In this document: piece after piece, positions 1 through 19,776 of the stretch | Position numbering within the stretch: the first letter of the stretch is position 1 | How the letters are laid out: every line of letters begins with the position of its first letter | Virus record (IMG/VR): IMGVR_UViG_3300047673_000048 | Span: 1-20,925 of that record | Length of the DNA: 20,925 nucleotides | Strand: one strand, 5' to 3' | Source of the DNA: a virus | Translations under genes and position numbers: made by a program | Notes under the pieces: generated by a model | The model's database searches: none | What the model was told of the DNA's origin: nothing | The model's input: only the letters and a program-made list of their open reading frames with translations

Positions 1-2270
1 CCTTCGTCGCACGGCTCAAGCACGCCCGGGAAGAACCCCGCTAGCGCGTCGCTGGTCTCCCGGTATTCCTTCGTAGCCTCAGCGATCACGGACGGGTCTT
101 GCAGCCCACCCGCGAACCACTCGACCGCACCGCGCACCGCCCATGCGGCAATGCCCTCAGACTCGGCCAGTAGCTTTTGGTCAAGGGTGTGGTCCCGCTC
201 TTCCGGCGCAAACCAGCGCTTGAACGGGATCATTTTCACACGCCGCCACAACCCCTCATCCTGGCCCCGAAATTTGGGCTTGTGATTTGTGGCCAGCATG
301 AGAAGAAACGTGGGCTTGAACGTGAAGAACTCTTGCCGGAGAAAGCGCGCCGCTATCTCGTCCTTTCCGGTCACGCGCTTGAGCACCGCTTCGGACATGG
401 GCTTGCCGGATTCGCCTTCGGACGCCATGACGAAGCGCGCGCTCCGAAGTGCCGCTAGGTCGTTCGGGATTCCGCCGCTGGACTTCTCCTCAAACGTGGC
501 GAAGGGCGTTGTCTTGGAAATGGGCCGGAACACGGAAGTGAGAGTGTCCGTCGCTACCGACTTGCCGTTAGCTCCCTTGCCCCACAACACGGCGAAGCAC
601 TGTTCAGCGACGGAGCCCGTTACGCCGTACCCGCACAACCGGCGGAAGTAGTCGGCAAGCTCCGGGTTGCCCGGGAAGATTTCCAAGAGGAACTGTTCCC
701 AGCGCGGACACGTGGCGTTCGGGTTGTAGTCGAGATCCAGGGCGTACGTGATCATGTCCGCCTTATCGTGGTCCCGCAGTAGGCCCGTGCGGAGATCCAC
801 CGTGCCGTTACGGAAGCTGAGAAGGTGCTCCCGCGCGTCGAATGCGTCCGCCTCAACGGCCACGCTGGGCACGGCGCGAAGCTCCCGCATGAGTGAGTCA
901 ATGTTCCGGGTGAGCGTGAACCCCTTCGCTATCTTGCGTAGCTTCTCCCCCGGGTCATCCTTGCCCGGGTCGCCACCCTTCGCCCGGTGCTCCGCCGACT
1001 TCTCAGCGGCAGCCACCGTGAGCGCTGCCCCCATGTAGTGGATTGCCTGCCGGACACGGGTCTCTGACTTCTCCCAGGTGGCACCCGACCACACGTAGAA
1101 GCCAAGCCCCGGGGCGTACTTGATCCGGCCCCCGGTGAACGTCACCAGCGCGTGAGCGTTGAGCACGTCCGAAGACCCGTACCGCTCCATAAGGTCCGTG
1201 ACCATACGAACGGCCCTACGCGCTTCGTCAGCGTCCGGGACAAGCGCCCCGGTGTCTCCGTCCGGAGTGGCTATGCCGTGCGCCCCAGGGACCGTCTGAG
1301 CCCCCTTGACAGCCTCATGCAGCAGCACCGGGAACGCCCGGGGTCCGACCCGCTCACGCCAGTCCGTAAGGTCCGCGCCAGCGTAGGGAACCTCAAGGGT
1401 CGCCACCGGCACACCGTGAGCGGCAAGCCCGTCCGCGAGACGCTTCGTGAAGCCGTTACCGGCAGCGTCGTTGTCGCCACAGATGATGACCTGAGACCCG
1501 CGCACACCCGCCGCAAGCTCAGCGATCAAGTCCGGTGACGTCGCCAGCGAAGCGCCCCGGATGGCTACCGCGTCGTACCCGCAGGAAACCGCTGTGAGCG
1601 CGTCTCCCGGCCCCTCAGTGACCAGGACAACCCCATAGCCACCCTGCCCGCGAAACACGCCGTACGGGGTCCACCGGTAGCCCTCAGGGTTCATGAGGGA
1701 CACCCACCGGCCCGGACAGTCCCCGGACAGGTCCCGCCCCTGTAGTCCGCGCGGCTGTCCGTCGAAACCACGGAGCGGCACGGTAAGGCGCGGGTACGCA
1801 AGGAACGTCCGGGACAGGAACGGCAGCACGTCCGAAGGCGGTCCGCCAGCGTCCAGCCCGATGCCAAGCTCTGACGCCGTATCGTCGTCCAGCCCGAAGC
1901 GCCGGAGCATGTACCCGCGTGCCCGCTCCGCAAGTTCAGACGTCCAGTCGAACAGTCGCAGCGACGACATGTCTACGTACCGCGCAAGCATCTCTGAATG
2001 CGTACCGGTCACAAGCTCCGCGCGCTCCGCCGGAACCGTGAGGCTGTCACCGGTCGCCTTGAACATGTCGTTCCACGTGAGGCCCACGGCCTTGATCACG
2101 TCTTCGGTCTCACACCCAACCCGGCATGTCATCCGGACCTTATCGTCTCGCCCGCGCCAGATACGGAGCGACGGACGGGAGTCACTATGCGCCGGACACA
2201 GCGCAAGATATCCCCCGTCCGTCTCTTCGCTCACGTCAGTGAAGCGGTCGAGAATGTCAACGAACTTCAT
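1..2270 (-). CDS. Phage DNA primase-helicase (CHC2 zinc, Toprim, D5/SF3), 3' end cut by window
   Basis: Translating the minus strand from the ATG at 2270 gives an open frame of about 756 codons that reaches position 1 without a stop, so the C-terminus is missing. A CHC2-type zinc motif is visible at about residues 25-53 (C25, H28, C49, C53), then a Toprim core (EGPGDAL near 219, GDND near 265) as in primases. The second half is a D5/P4-type superfamily 3 helicase: Walker A GKGANGKS near 564-571, an acidic Walker B-like segment (FVMASEGE near 613), a sensor ATNHKPKF near 660 and a paired-arginine LWRRV near 674. It should prime and unwind DNA at the phage replication fork. The ribosome binding site AAGGGGAGCC precedes the ATG. 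The gene follows the HNH gene across a 48-nt gap that holds a copy of the asymmetric intergenic repeat. Confidence 0.93.
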   Translation of the reverse strand, partial: MKFVDILDRFTDVSEETDGGYLALCPAHSDSRPSLRIWRGRDDKVRMTCRVGCETEDVIKAVGLTWNDMFKATGDSLTVPAERAELVTGTHSEMLARYVDMSSLRLFDWTSELAERARGYMLRRFGLDDDTASELGIGLDAGGPPSDVLPFLSRTFLAYPRLTVPLRGFDGQPRGLQGRDLSGDCPGRWVSLMNPEGYRWTPYGVFRGQGGYGVVLVTEGPGDALTAVSCGYDAVAIRGASLATSPDLIAELAAGVRGSQVIICGDNDAAGNGFTKRLADGLAAHGVPVATLEVPYAGADLTDWRERVGPRAFPVLLHEAVKGAQTVPGAHGIATPDGDTGALVPDADEARRAVRMVTDLMERYGSSDVLNAHALVTFTGGRIKYAPGLGFYVWSGATWEKSETRVRQAIHYMGAALTVAAAEKSAEHRAKGGDPGKDDPGEKLRKIAKGFTLTRNIDSLMRELRAVPSVAVEADAFDAREHLLSFRNGTVDLRTGLLRDHDKADMITYALDLDYNPNATCPRWEQFLLEIFPGNPELADYFRRLCGYGVTGSVAEQCFAVLWGKGANGKSVATDTLTSVFRPISKTTPFATFEEKSSGGIPNDLAALRSARFVMASEGESGKPMSEAVLKRVTGKDEIAARFLRQEFFTFKPTFLLMLATNHKPKFRGQDEGLWRRVKMIPFKRWFAPEERDHTLDQKLLAESEGIAAWAVRGAVEWFAGGLQDPSVIAEATKEYRETSDALAGFFPGVLEPCDE

Positions 2271-2292
2271 TGGCTCCCCTTAAAAGTCTCTT

Positions 2293-2319
2293 CACTGACG
2301 GGGTAGTGAGTCGATTGCC
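2293..2319 (-). repeat. Asymmetric intergenic repeat, copy 1
   Basis: On the minus strand this reads GGCAATCGACTCACTACCCC followed by GTCAGTG. It begins at the stop codon of the HNH gene and ends about 23 nt before the primase start. It matches copies at 5075, 6257 and 9597, and partly 7493. Confidence 0.8.
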
Positions 2320-2744
2320 TAGAACGGCAAATCGTCCGGGCCGAAGGTTTCCGCCCATTCGGCCAGCGTCTTAGCCCCCTTCCGGAGATTGCACGTGCGG
2401 CAGGCAGGCACGATGTTGTGTTCCGCGTCCGCCCCACCCTTGGACAGCGGGTGCACGTGATCTAGGTGGGTTGCCGTGGCCTGGCAGTAGCAGCAGCGCC
2501 CATGCCAGCGCCGGAGAATCGCCGTGCGCGAATACTCGACGTGCTCAACCCCGTACGCCTCAGCGCGCCGCTTGTGCGTGACCGTGTGACGCTTGTCCGG
2601 CGGCAACTTCCGGTAGTAGTCCTTACGGTGCTGAGCCTGCCGTTTCCGGCGACACGTGGCACACGCGGAAGACTCTTTCTTCGCCTTACCGGCTAGGAAC
2701 TGTTCAGCGGGCTTTCCCCGCCCGCATAGTCGGCACACCTTCAC
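2319..2744 (-). CDS. HNH endonuclease with N-terminal zinc motif
   Basis: This is a 141-aa protein starting at GTG (2744), two nucleotides after the stop of the upstream gene. The N-terminus carries two CxxC pairs (C4/C7 and C28/C31) that suggest a zinc knuckle. The C-terminal half is a classic HNH nuclease: CYC near 85-87, LDHVHPLSKGG near 94-104 with the D-H pair, N110, and a second CxxC at 115/118. HNH proteins of this size in phages serve as packaging-associated nickases or as homing or free-standing endonucleases. Here it lies beside the primase-helicase rather than the terminase, so a packaging role is less obvious. The family assignment is firm; the biological role is inference. Confidence 0.92.
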   Translation of the reverse strand: MKVCRLCGRGKPAEQFLAGKAKKESSACATCRRKRQAQHRKDYYRKLPPDKRHTVTHKRRAEAYGVEHVEYSRTAILRRWHGRCCYCQATATHLDHVHPLSKGGADAEHNIVPACRTCNLRKGAKTLAEWAETFGPDDLPF

Positions 2745-5024: not shown

Positions 5025-5073
5025 GGGGGACGGGCGGGGTTGGCATCGGATGCTTCCGGCCGCTCCGTCCCCC
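5025..5073 (-). terminator. Hairpin in the leader of the directionality-factor gene
   Basis: Nine-base perfect arms GGGGGACGG and CCGTCCCCC enclose 31 nt that contain a second small palindrome (GCATCGGATGC). It lies between the lipoprotein and directionality-factor genes. It lacks a good T-tract on the minus strand (TGTCTTC), so it may be a weak terminator, an attenuator or an mRNA structure. Confidence 0.55.
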
Positions 5074-5074
5074 T

Positions 5075-5101
5075 CATTTACGGGGTAGTGAGTGGATTGC
5101 C
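5075..5101 (-). repeat. Asymmetric intergenic repeat, copy 2
   Basis: Minus strand GGCAATCCACTCACTACCCC then GTAAATGA, five nucleotides after the lipoprotein stop and just before the hairpin leader of the directionality-factor gene. Confidence 0.8.
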
Positions 5102-5106
5102 AGCGG

Positions 5107-5382: not shown

Positions 5383-6222
5383 TCACTTAGCCCTTCGCTG
5401 AGTACCGGTGGTGATGCCCTGAGTACCGCCCTGGGCAATGGGCTTGCCAATGACCGTCTTGGACAGCACGCGGTCCCAGTCGAACGCGCCCCGCAGCATC
5501 AGGAACGCGTTATAGACGTCCTGGTCAATGCGCACGGGCTTGAATGCCCACTTCTCGTCAGTGATGTGCAGCACCACAGCGCCGTCAAACTCCGGCATGG
5601 GCTCAGAGTTGCCGTCCGGGTCAATGATCCGGTCAGCGTGCGCATAGGCGGACATCTGCAACGCTACGTCCGGGTAGGTGTCCTTAGACGTTTTCCAGTC
5701 CGCGACGACTAGGGCAGGCTCCCCGGAACGGTCCGGGGTCGGTCGCTGGTTTTCGTCCAGCCAAATCCGCAGCATGGCGTCAAAGGAACCCGCGTACTGG
5801 TGAGTGTCCGACCATGCGACGTCTTCCGCCCGGACAAGCTCCGGGTTCACGGCGTCCAGGAAGTCAGCGAAGTTGGCCCGGTACGGTTCCATGTCCCGCG
5901 ACACGCGACCGACGTACTCACCGCGAATCATGCGCTCAAACAGGTCGTGGGCTTCGCTGCCGACGTCCGCGCGGATCTTCGTGTATCGGCGCGCGGCACC
6001 CTTGAGGTAGTCGATTGCGCCTTGCCGGTCCCGCTCCGCCATCTGCTGTACGAAGTCGAGTGAGTCAACGGCAAGTTCCGCAACCATCTTCGCATTCCAG
6101 AATGCGAGGAACGGCTTTGCGAGCGTGCCGATTACCGACGTGACACCCGGGACAGTGATGTCCGGTGCGTCAGTGTCGAAATAGAAGCGGCTGCCGCCCT
6201 TACTTCGGGTACGGATAGTCAT
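5383..6222 (-). CDS. PD-(D/E)XK exonuclease, RecB/Cas4-like
   Basis: This 279-aa protein shows the RecB-type nuclease motifs in order: GSEAHDLFE near 88-96 (H92), YAGSFDAM near 143-150 (D148), VVADWKTSK near 172-180 (D175, K177) and QMSAYAHAD near 189 (Q..Y). These are the histidine, aspartate, D-x-K and Q-x3-Y signatures of the PD-(D/E)XK superfamily. It most likely processes DNA ends in phage replication or recombination. No iron-sulfur cysteine cluster is visible, so it is not a typical Cas4. The ATG at 6222 has AGGGAGGCACC upstream. It is preceded by a 245-nt non-coding segment containing iterons, and followed by the lipoprotein gene. Confidence 0.88.
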   Translation of the reverse strand: MTIRTRSKGGSRFYFDTDAPDITVPGVTSVIGTLAKPFLAFWNAKMVAELAVDSLDFVQQMAERDRQGAIDYLKGAARRYTKIRADVGSEAHDLFERMIRGEYVGRVSRDMEPYRANFADFLDAVNPELVRAEDVAWSDTHQYAGSFDAMLRIWLDENQRPTPDRSGEPALVVADWKTSKDTYPDVALQMSAYAHADRIIDPDGNSEPMPEFDGAVVLHITDEKWAFKPVRIDQDVYNAFLMLRGAFDWDRVLSKTVIGKPIAQGGTQGITTGTQRRAK

Positions 6223-6256
6223 CCGGTGGTGCCTCCCTGGGCTCCGTATGTGGTCT

Positions 6257-6283
6257 CACTTACGGGGTAGGGAGTCGGTTGCC
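6257..6283 (-). repeat. Asymmetric intergenic repeat, copy 3
   Basis: Minus strand GGCAACCGACTCCCTACCCC then GTAAGTG. Its first base touches the left iteron cluster, and it precedes the exonuclease start by about 35 nt. Confidence 0.78.
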
Positions 6284-6389
6284 AGTGACGAAGTGACGGA
6301 GTGGCGCACCGGTCCGGTTGTGCCTACAGCTCTTGTATCTCTTCTATGGGTGGTTCCCAGAGATACGTCAAACCGTCACTTCGTCACTG
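6283..6389. repeat. Iteron clusters in inverted orientation with nested hairpin
   Basis: Plus strand 6284-6307 holds three tandem 8-mers AGTGACGA, AGTGACGG, AGTGGCGC. The minus strand of 6365-6388 holds AGTGACGA, AGTGACGG, TTTGACGT. The two clusters form a perfect 17-bp inverted repeat separated by 73 nt. Between them, GTATCTCT (6335-6342) pairs with AGAGATAC (6359-6366). A replication origin, initiator or regulator binding array, or a structured RNA are possible. Confidence 0.8.
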
Positions 6390-6413
6390 TGCGCCCCGCT
6401 GAGGGCATGAAAG

Positions 6414-6446
6414 AGCCCCGCCCGACCACTGGGGCCGAACGGGGCT
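6414..6446 (-). terminator. Terminator after the 55-aa zinc-type gene
   Basis: Arms AGCCCCG (6414-6420) and CGGGGCT (6440-6446) with an inner CGGCC/GGTCG pairing; on the minus strand it is followed by CTTTC. It ends the unit that begins near 7455. Confidence 0.72.
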
Positions 6447-6467
6447 GAGAGGGACGCTACGCCGCGC

Positions 6468-6635
6468 CTAGGGCTTCCTAGGGGGCAAGCGCCCGAAGAG
6501 CTTGAACGACACGTGCGCCTGAACCTCTTCGGGTTCGTGTCCGTCGCATATGAACTGTCCTAGGCACTCGAACATCTCGGCATCGGGCTTGCGCGTCCCG
6601 CACAGGCAGCACGGGACGCCATCGCTCAGAACCAT
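6468..6635 (-). CDS. 55-aa protein with zinc-binding cysteine motif
   Basis: The ATG at 6635 lies inside the last codons of the upstream gene, overlapping its TGA by a few bases in another frame. The protein starts MVLSDGVPCCLCGT and continues with cysteines at 9, 10, 12, 24 and 30 and CDGH, then ends in a basic tail KLFGRLPPRKP. The CCxC...C...CxxH arrangement fits a small zinc-ribbon fold. No strong ribosome binding site precedes it, so translational coupling to the upstream gene is likely. A longer overlapping frame in another phase (start 6738) is arginine-rich shadow sequence. Confidence 0.68.
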   Translation of the reverse strand: MVLSDGVPCCLCGTRKPDAEMFECLGQFICDGHEPEEVQAHVSFKLFGRLPPRKP

Positions 6636-9569: not shown

Positions 9570-9596
9570 TCGCTCTCCCTACTCGCCCGGGGCTGT

Positions 9597-9622
9597 CATT
9601 TCGGGCTAGGGAGTCGATTGCC
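9597..9622 (-). repeat. Asymmetric intergenic repeat, copy 4
   Basis: Minus strand GGCAATCGACTCCCTAGCCC then GAAATG, beginning at the last base of the holin stop codon and lying upstream of the dNMP kinase gene. It marks the late/early boundary. Confidence 0.78.
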
Positions 9623-9825
9623 TACGGCTTGCGCTTCGCCACCGGCACCGCCTTAGCAATGTTCTTCGCCGCACGCTGGGCAGCCTCGCCAACGCCTAGC
9701 AGCGCGCCAGCGCCAGTGAGAACGGCGTCCACCGGGATACCCGGGCGGTAGTGCGCGCCGACCACCAGGGCCACGGACAGCACCGCGTATAGGCGCGTGG
9801 CGTGCGCCTTGATCCAAACCTTCAT
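9622..9825 (-). CDS. Holin-like small membrane protein
   Basis: This is a 67-aa protein from the ATG at 9825 (CACGGAGCG upstream). The frame is open for longer, but the extra N-terminal part is low-complexity translation of the endolysin end and intergenic DNA. It has a basic N-terminus, a hydrophobic segment RLYAVLSVALVVGAHY near 11-26, a second AVLTGAGALLGVGEAA near 34-49, and a lysine/arginine-rich tail. Two short membrane spans, a charged tail and position directly after the endolysin fit a holin that permeabilises the membrane. The class is inferred from context. Confidence 0.75.
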   Translation of the reverse strand: MKVWIKAHATRLYAVLSVALVVGAHYRPGIPVDAVLTGAGALLGVGEAAQRAAKNIAKAVPVAKRKP

Positions 9826-19347: not shown

Positions 19348-19776
19348 TTAGGTGATTCGCCCGCGCACATGCACGCGAACAACAAGCGCCGAGTAAGCGC
19401 CGTCAGTGGTTTCCCCCGTGTCGCAACTTCCGGACTCCGGGCGTATGTCTTGCAGCCCCTCAACCGACGCGCGAGGCAGGGACCGGCAGGCTTCGGCAAT
19501 CACCTCACGAAGTCCGTACACGGCCCGCTCAGCGTCTATCGGCTTGCCCGGGGTAACCACCAGCGCGTGAGCCTCAATCGTGCCGCTCACGTTCGTTGGC
19601 TTGCGTGTCCCCTGCCGCATACCCGCGACTTCGTCGTCATCATCCGTAGTCGCGCCTAGAAAGATTTGGTGACGTCGGTCCGCTTTACCGGTCTCCGCAA
19701 ACGTCACTTGAGTACCCGCCGGGGCGGCAGCCACCAGCGCGTCAAACAGGGCTGACTTCACGTTGAACATGAACAC
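19348..19776 (-). CDS. Probable tail terminator protein
   Basis: This is a 142-aa protein. The frame starts at GTG 19776 (M-F-M-F-N-V-K) with AAGGGGCTGG upstream; ATG 19770 is an alternative. A N-terminal helix (VKSALFDALVAAAPAG), a strand region and a central helix (ERAVYGLREVIAEACRSL near 85-102), and the C-terminal ALVVRVHVRGRIT strand match the fold pattern of gpU-like tail terminators, which cap the tail before joining the head. The assignment rests on pattern and position, between the adaptor and tail tube genes; a neck protein is the alternative. Confidence 0.65.
   Translation of the reverse strand: MFMFNVKSALFDALVAAAPAGTQVTFAETGKADRRHQIFLGATTDDDDEVAGMRQGTRKPTNVSGTIEAHALVVTPGKPIDAERAVYGLREVIAEACRSLPRASVEGLQDIRPESGSCDTGETTDGAYSALVVRVHVRGRIT

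What the first reader, a model, noticed from the sequence alone, without database searches (positions are those of the whole stretch)
6283..6389. Iteron-like inverted array with nested hairpin in a non-coding gap
Two clusters of three 8-mers (AGTGACGN type) face each other as a perfect 17-bp inverted repeat 73 nt apart, enclosing a second 8-bp inverted repeat. It is bordered by a terminator and by an asymmetric repeat copy, and lies between a zinc-type gene and the exonuclease, upstream of the primase-helicase. The array could be a replication origin, a regulator binding array, or encode a structured RNA. No listed gene explains it.
Basis: partly seen in the sequence, partly recalled or inferred. 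Interest (0 to 1): 0.72.

Follow-up and report, generated by a model that had tools for sequence, protein, structure and literature searches.

The report
phiC31-family phage replication origin candidate
A non-coding stretch in a phiC31-like Streptomyces phage carries facing arrays of short repeats around an AT-richer centre; nearly every relative examined has this element, usually twice per genome, and its repeat sequence changes in step with the DNA-reading domain of the phage's own primase-helicase, so it is probably where the phage starts copying its DNA.

Summary
In detail: a perfect 17-bp inverted repeat (arms 6283-6299/6373-6389, 73 nt apart) built of 8-nt GTGACGNN units, the only one of its kind in the window (0 of 200 shuffles reach 17 bp). 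The window is a phiC31-like phage. The same element stands upstream of the exonuclease gene in phiC31, phiBT1, TG1 and about two dozen relatives, and nearly all complete genomes carry a second copy just after the integrase. Unit sequence and spacing agree between the two copies of a genome but differ between genomes. Among 2187 16-residue windows of eight phage proteins, iteron sequence tracks best the C-terminal winged helix of the P4-family primase-helicase (rho 0.67; partial 0.53-0.69 after controls). AlphaFold puts that part in a winged helix that aligns with the phage P4 origin-binding domain. The layout, two facing iteron sets around an AT-rich core, is that published for PICI/SaPI origins. 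Best reading: a P4/PICI-type replication origin. RNA stem rejected: non-core arm positions pair no better than chance. Not shown: binding and replication initiation. I found no description of a phiC31 origin in the open-access library.

The parts
6283..6308 (+). iteron array A: GTGACGAA GTGACGGA GTGGCGCA (two perfect units, one degenerate)
6366..6389 (-). iteron array B, inverted: GTGACGAA GTGACGGT TTGACG
6309..6365 (.). AT-richer centre, proposed melting region; holds nearly all of the nested inverted repeat GTATCTCT/AGAGATAC (6335-6342/6359-6366)
   Evidence: spacer AT 0.45 against window mean 0.37, a mild excess reached by 9.5% of the window's 65-mers; family mean core AT 0.55
6255..6285 (-). 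early-promoter-like repeat upstream of the exonuclease gene; other copies at 2291, 5073, 9594
   Evidence: repeat family D2; promoter role inferred from position only
6412..6448 (-). terminator-like stem after the small zinc-type gene; conserved in relatives
   Evidence: I6; Rowa 89% identity over 6387-6458
5383..6222 (-). Cas4-type exonuclease gene (phiC31 gene 1 homologue), directly downstream
1..2270 (-). P4-family primase-helicase gene (phiC31 9a homologue), proposed reader of the iterons; its C-terminal DNA-binding domain is cut off by the end of the contig

Best explanation
The element is a replication origin (or one of a pair of origin-type sites) of the P4/PICI kind. The phage's P4-family primase-helicase binds the two facing iteron sets with its C-terminal winged helix, chiefly through the wing; two oligomers facing each other then melt the AT-richer centre, load as helicases and prime synthesis for the phage's own DNA polymerase. 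A second, matched copy behind the integrase gene serves the same protein, in the way P4 uses ori and crr, or as a second start point. Shown: conservation in place, two copies in most complete genomes, agreement of the copies, covariation with the winged helix, winged-helix fold by prediction. Inferred: physical binding, melting, initiation, the number of oligomers and the role of the second copy.
For: (1) Same place in about 25 phiC31-like phages. (2) Second copy in phiC31, Rowa, RemusLoopin, Shady and 19 of 23 further relatives; a motif-free finder recovers both copies as the top pair in the four named genomes and in Curtobacterium phage Moss and Microbacterium phage Honk, and gives Dubu a pair in the expected places at rank 2. 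(3) Arms of the two copies of one genome are 0.95 alike against 0.73 +- 0.03 for permuted partners, maximum 0.835 in 5000, so one trans-acting reader is the simplest account. (4) Blind scan of 2187 windows in 8 proteins: the best is primase residues 774-789, and 15 of the top 16 lie in 763-792; partial correlation 0.53-0.69 given exonuclease, polymerase, dNMP kinase, RDF, gp4, gp7 or primase 1-650, while those lose all or most of their signal given the winged helix. All 16 TGAC-class genomes in that test have the wing [KR][KR]K[TS]xxGI, none of the 9 others. (5) The protein is P4 family (TIGR01613, D5_N, Toprim). (6) AlphaFold: winged helix at residues 71-135 of the C-terminal 150 (pLDDT about 72-89); aligned with 1ka8, the phage P4 origin-binding domain, Z 7.7 over 75 residues. 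[quoted passage not shown] SaPI Rep reads iterons with its C-terminal domain (PMC7581432). (8) Element core AT 0.55 on average.
Against: No binding or replication data. Cumulative GC skew in four complete genomes shows no turn at either copy. Polymerase (rho 0.22) and gp4 (0.18) keep a small partial correlation; one N-terminal RDF window scores 0.66 in a half-size subset. Mantel tests only partly correct for shared descent. Copy 1 is missing in L016/G012, copy 2 was not found in L012/G009, and neither in phiSASD1. The simple wing rule does not carry over to Curtobacterium phage Moss (GTGAC iterons, wing TRKRSTGGK; primase only 46% identical). The origins published for PICIs lie directly 3' of the rep gene; here the element is several kb upstream of it. 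RFX domains align better than 1ka8, so the fold match is generic. In the window itself the core is only mildly AT-rich and the primase C-terminus is cut off.
Confidence: 0.74

Rival explanations
1. A regulatory array: the same primase-helicase winged helix, or another phage DNA-binding protein, binds the iterons to switch the early promoters that follow each copy.
For: A promoter-like repeat follows copy 1 at once, and similar sequence follows many second copies; copy 1 heads the early operon.
Against: Other copies of the same promoter-like repeat in the window (2291, 5073, 9594) have no array. The symmetric layout with a fixed length (89-96 or 103-115 nt for 49 of 50 elements) and AT-richer core is not needed by an operator.
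Confidence: 0.13
2. A structured RNA: the arms pair as a long stem in a transcript.
For: The arms are complementary in nearly every genome although their sequence changes.
Against: Between arms of one element the non-core NN positions agree in 34/88 cases, 0.39, against 0.36 +- 0.05 for arms of different elements; a stem would need them to pair. Shifting the register by one unit costs little (0.80 against 0.85). No Rfam family fits.
Confidence: 0.04
3. Binding sites of the main phage repressor (CIR-type operators).
For: phiC31 is known to carry many repressor operators in intergenic gaps (own knowledge).
Against: The window has a separate, sevenfold 22-bp palindrome GACCTACTCAATTGAGTAGGTC in its intergenic gaps that fits that role far better; the iteron array is a different sequence and occurs once in the window.
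Confidence: 0.03
4. A recombination, partition or packaging site, or a mobile repeat element.
For: Copy 2 follows the integrase gene closely (about 65-440 bp in six genomes).
Against: Copy 1 lies many kb from the integrase gene and sits at one fixed place; the sequences are diverged and class-specific, unlike a recent mobile element.
Confidence: 0.06

Closest known systems
PICI/SaPI replication origins with Rep/Pri-Rep initiators (PMC6092414; PMC7581432)
   Same: Two iteron sets facing across an AT-rich region; initiator helicase with a C-terminal DNA-binding domain (SaPI5 Rep and Cch2 share the Primase_Cterm/D5 type).
   Different: Here in full-size phages with their own DNA polymerase, several kb from the initiator gene instead of directly 3' of it, usually in two matched copies per genome. 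The 2018 paper says the layout is found in 'no other known bacterial replicon'.
Satellite phage P4 ori/crr and alpha protein (origin-binding domain 1ka8)
   Same: Toprim primase plus helicase of the P4 family; winged-helix C-terminus; two cis sites per genome read by one protein (ori/crr from own knowledge).
   Different: P4 iteron sequence and layout differ (own knowledge); P4's crr is required, while the role of copy 2 here is unknown.
SCCmec Cch2 and its putative origin (PMC7581432)
   Same: Primase_Cterm/D5 helicase whose isolated C-terminal domain binds short AAGTG iterons in an intergenic gap.
   Different: Only three iterons in a direct-repeat block, no two facing sets around a core; the primase is a separate protein pair.

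Membership tests
P4-family primase-helicase (initiator) | TIGR01613 / D5_N helicase with Toprim primase | tested here: met
   TIGR01613 E 6e-79 (265 bits, cut-off 108.7), D5_N 3e-32 in phiC31; D5_N 4e-31 and Toprim in the window's protein
P4-family primase-helicase (initiator) | C-terminal winged-helix DNA-binding domain | tested here: met
   predicted winged helix, aligns with 1ka8 (Z 7.7); a prediction on relatives, as the window's copy is cut off
[quoted passage not shown]
   50 elements, core AT 0.46-0.64; window mean 0.37, window spacer 0.45-0.47
PICI/SaPI-type origin | lies directly 3' of the initiator gene | tested here: not met
   element lies upstream of gene 1, about 3-5 kb before the primase gene, and a second copy lies behind int
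PICI/SaPI-type origin | specific binding by the initiator's C-terminal domain | not testable with these tools
   only covariation seen
PICI/SaPI-type origin | supports autonomous replication with its initiator | not testable with these tools
   needs experiment
P4 ori/crr | two cis sites per genome with the same iteron type | tested here: met
   (relatives; the window fragment lacks the second region)
structured RNA | matching (compensatory) changes between the arms at non-core positions | tested here: not met
   0.39 against 0.36 +- 0.05 expected

The most novel reading that the evidence does not exclude
phiC31-type phages of several actinobacterial genera (Streptomyces, Curtobacterium, Microbacterium) replicate from a matched pair of distant PICI-type origins, one before the early operon and one behind the integrase, both read by the wing of a P4-family primase-helicase, whose few wing residues form a readable code for origin choice; phages of different iteron class therefore cannot fire each other's origins.
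Probability: 0.4. Interest if true: 0.75.

Novelty: new variant of a known kind. Interest (0 to 1): 0.62.

Why it matters
phiC31 is the source of a very widely used serine integrase and of Streptomyces vectors, and I found no described origin for it. The element gives exact coordinates to test. It extends an origin layout reported only for phage satellites to complete phages, which bears on how satellites and phages exchanged replication modules, and it offers about eight natural iteron classes paired with wing sequences from which to learn how P4-type initiators read DNA.

Tried and rejected
RNA stem and Rfam families (one sub-threshold chance match). Sigma-70 promoter inside the array (none). 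Repressor operator (the 22-bp palindrome fits that role). GC-skew as origin evidence: uninformative, no turn at either copy; skew probably follows the one-way gene direction. Other phage proteins as readers: exonuclease, dNMP kinase, RDF, gp7 carry no independent signal. L016 looked like a clean absence but has a copy behind int of its own class (GGTGAAAC). The wing rule was tried on Moss and Honk and could not be extended at 46% identity. Searches of the open-access library found no earlier description; subscription papers, including the phiC31 genome paper and the SaPI origin papers, were not readable. The solved-structure sequence search gave 7ola (a DNA primase) as best relative, E 4e-9.

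Full report
What is there. The window is 20.9 kb of a phiC31-like Streptomyces phage, with its recognisable genes on the - strand. In the gap between the small zinc-type gene (6468-6635) and the exonuclease gene (5383-6222) lie two facing sets of 8-nt units, GTGACGAA GTGACGGA GTGGCG on the + strand from 6285 and the same kind inverted up to 6389. The outer 17 bp are perfectly complementary with a 73-nt loop. No other inverted repeat of the window comes near (next 12 bp) and none of 200 dinucleotide shuffles exceeded 14 bp.

Relatives. The gap upstream of the exonuclease gene was read in 15 IMG/VR loci (several are near-identical) and 18 named phages including phiC31, phiBT1 and TG1. Nearly all have facing arrays of 7-8 nt units around an AT-richer centre. 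The total length is tightly held: of 50 extracted elements (both copies), 41 are 89-96 nt, 8 are 103-115 nt and one is 79 nt. The centre often carries a TATAAGA/TCTATAG type dyad (read from the sequences). The unit sequence is not conserved across the family: GTGACGNN (phiC31, window), TGACGA at 7-nt spacing (L014, L015), CTGACRA (L010), GTGCAGNN (RemusLoopin, Heather, Sebastisaurus), GTGTAGAA (Rowa), GAGTGTCG (Sycamore, Shaeky, Shady, L017), GGTGAATG (L012).

Second copy. Whole-genome scans of phiC31, Rowa, RemusLoopin and Shady found a second element behind the integrase gene, and 19 of 23 further relatives have one. A search that knew no motif, only 'two distant inverted repeats with similar arms', ranked this pair first in all four, and likewise in Curtobacterium phage Moss (19962-20066, 33002-33106) and Microbacterium phage Honk (19324-19434, 39867-39987), where the places are again upstream of the Cas4-type exonuclease and directly behind the serine integrase. 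For Dubu the pair in the expected places (19675-19753, 37263-37344) ranked second. The window is a 20.9-kb fragment without this region, so its own second copy cannot be seen.

One reader in trans. The arms of the two copies within a genome are 0.95 alike, against 0.73 for shuffled partners with a maximum of 0.835 in 5000. Unit spacing (7 or 8 nt) also agrees within a genome. Two sites some 19 kb apart that change together suggest a common reader, though common descent of both copies adds to the agreement.

Which reader. Pairwise iteron distances of 25 genomes were compared with distances in every 16-residue window of eight phage proteins. Of 2187 windows the best is primase residues 774-789 (phiC31 numbering), and 15 of the best 16 lie within 763-792, which the structure prediction assigns to the end of the recognition helix and the wing of a winged helix. 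Controlling for any other protein leaves rho at 0.53-0.69, whereas exonuclease, dNMP kinase, RDF, gp7 and the rest of the primase fall to about zero once the winged helix is controlled; polymerase and gp4 keep about 0.2. These Mantel tests reduce but do not remove the effect of shared descent, and I had looked at the domain alignment before running the scan. By eye, all 16 TGAC-class genomes in the test have wing [KR][KR]K[TS]xxGI and none of the nine others has. In Moss, at 46% identity, this rule does not hold.

The protein. It is a P4-family primase-helicase: Toprim, D5_N, TIGR01613. The C-terminal 150 residues of an IMG relative were folded from ten sequences; mean pLDDT is only 67 but the winged helix is at about 72-89. 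VIA-align puts RFX domains first (Z 9.4, 8.5) and the phage P4 origin-binding domain third (1ka8, Z 7.7, 2.7 A, 75 residues). These Z values are modest and the fold is common. RFX domains read DNA largely through the wing (own knowledge), which fits the place of the covariation signal.

Why an origin. Fillol-Salom et al. [quoted passage not shown] P4 alpha binds origin repeats with a winged helix (PMC4234260). Layout, protein family and covariation all point the same way. What is not shown is binding, melting or initiation, so origin function is an inference.

RNA or regulator. If the arms formed a stem, non-core positions of the arms would pair within an element. They agree in 0.39 of cases against 0.36 for mixed elements, so the arms most likely face each other because the same site is used in both orientations. 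A regulatory role is possible, since a promoter-like repeat follows copy 1, but three further copies of that repeat in the window have no array.

Limits. Absences: phiSASD1 (none found), L012 (no copy 2), L016 (no copy 1, but a copy of its own class behind int). GC skew gives no support. The open-access library held no account of a phiC31 origin, but the subscription literature could not be read, so priority is uncertain.

Noticed in passing
window 3765, 7513, 8919, 12221, 15163, 18302, 20184: Seven copies of a 22-bp palindrome GACCTACTCAATTGAGTAGGTC (the first with one end base changed) in intergenic gaps: probable operators of the phage repressor, like the conserved inverted repeats of phiC31.
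   Followed up: partly
window 2291-2321, 5073-5103, 6255-6285, 9594-9624: Four copies of a 31-nt repeat (- strand GCAATCGACTCACTACCCCGT type) upstream of genes; looks like a phage early promoter of a non-sigma-70 type.
   Followed up: partly
L110 33002-33106; L111 39867-39987: The second element directly follows the serine integrase gene also in Curtobacterium and Microbacterium phages; in Moss the integrase is not near the genome end, so the copy tracks the integrase, not the tRNA genes or the right end.
   Followed up: partly
L051 40448-40536 and second copies in L075-L088: A TGACCTGGG-like motif stands just before the second copy in most Streptomyces phages and before copy 1 in the phiC31 group; unexplained.
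   Followed up: no
L107 (G003 27513-27649): Another relative has a different perfect palindrome, ACCTCCCAAATTTGGGAGGT, probably its own operator class, which would allow the same co-variation analysis with the repressor.
   Followed up: no
window 1-2270: The window's primase-helicase gene is cut by the contig end, so its wing, predicted to be of the [KR]KKTxxGI type, cannot be checked.
   Followed up: yes
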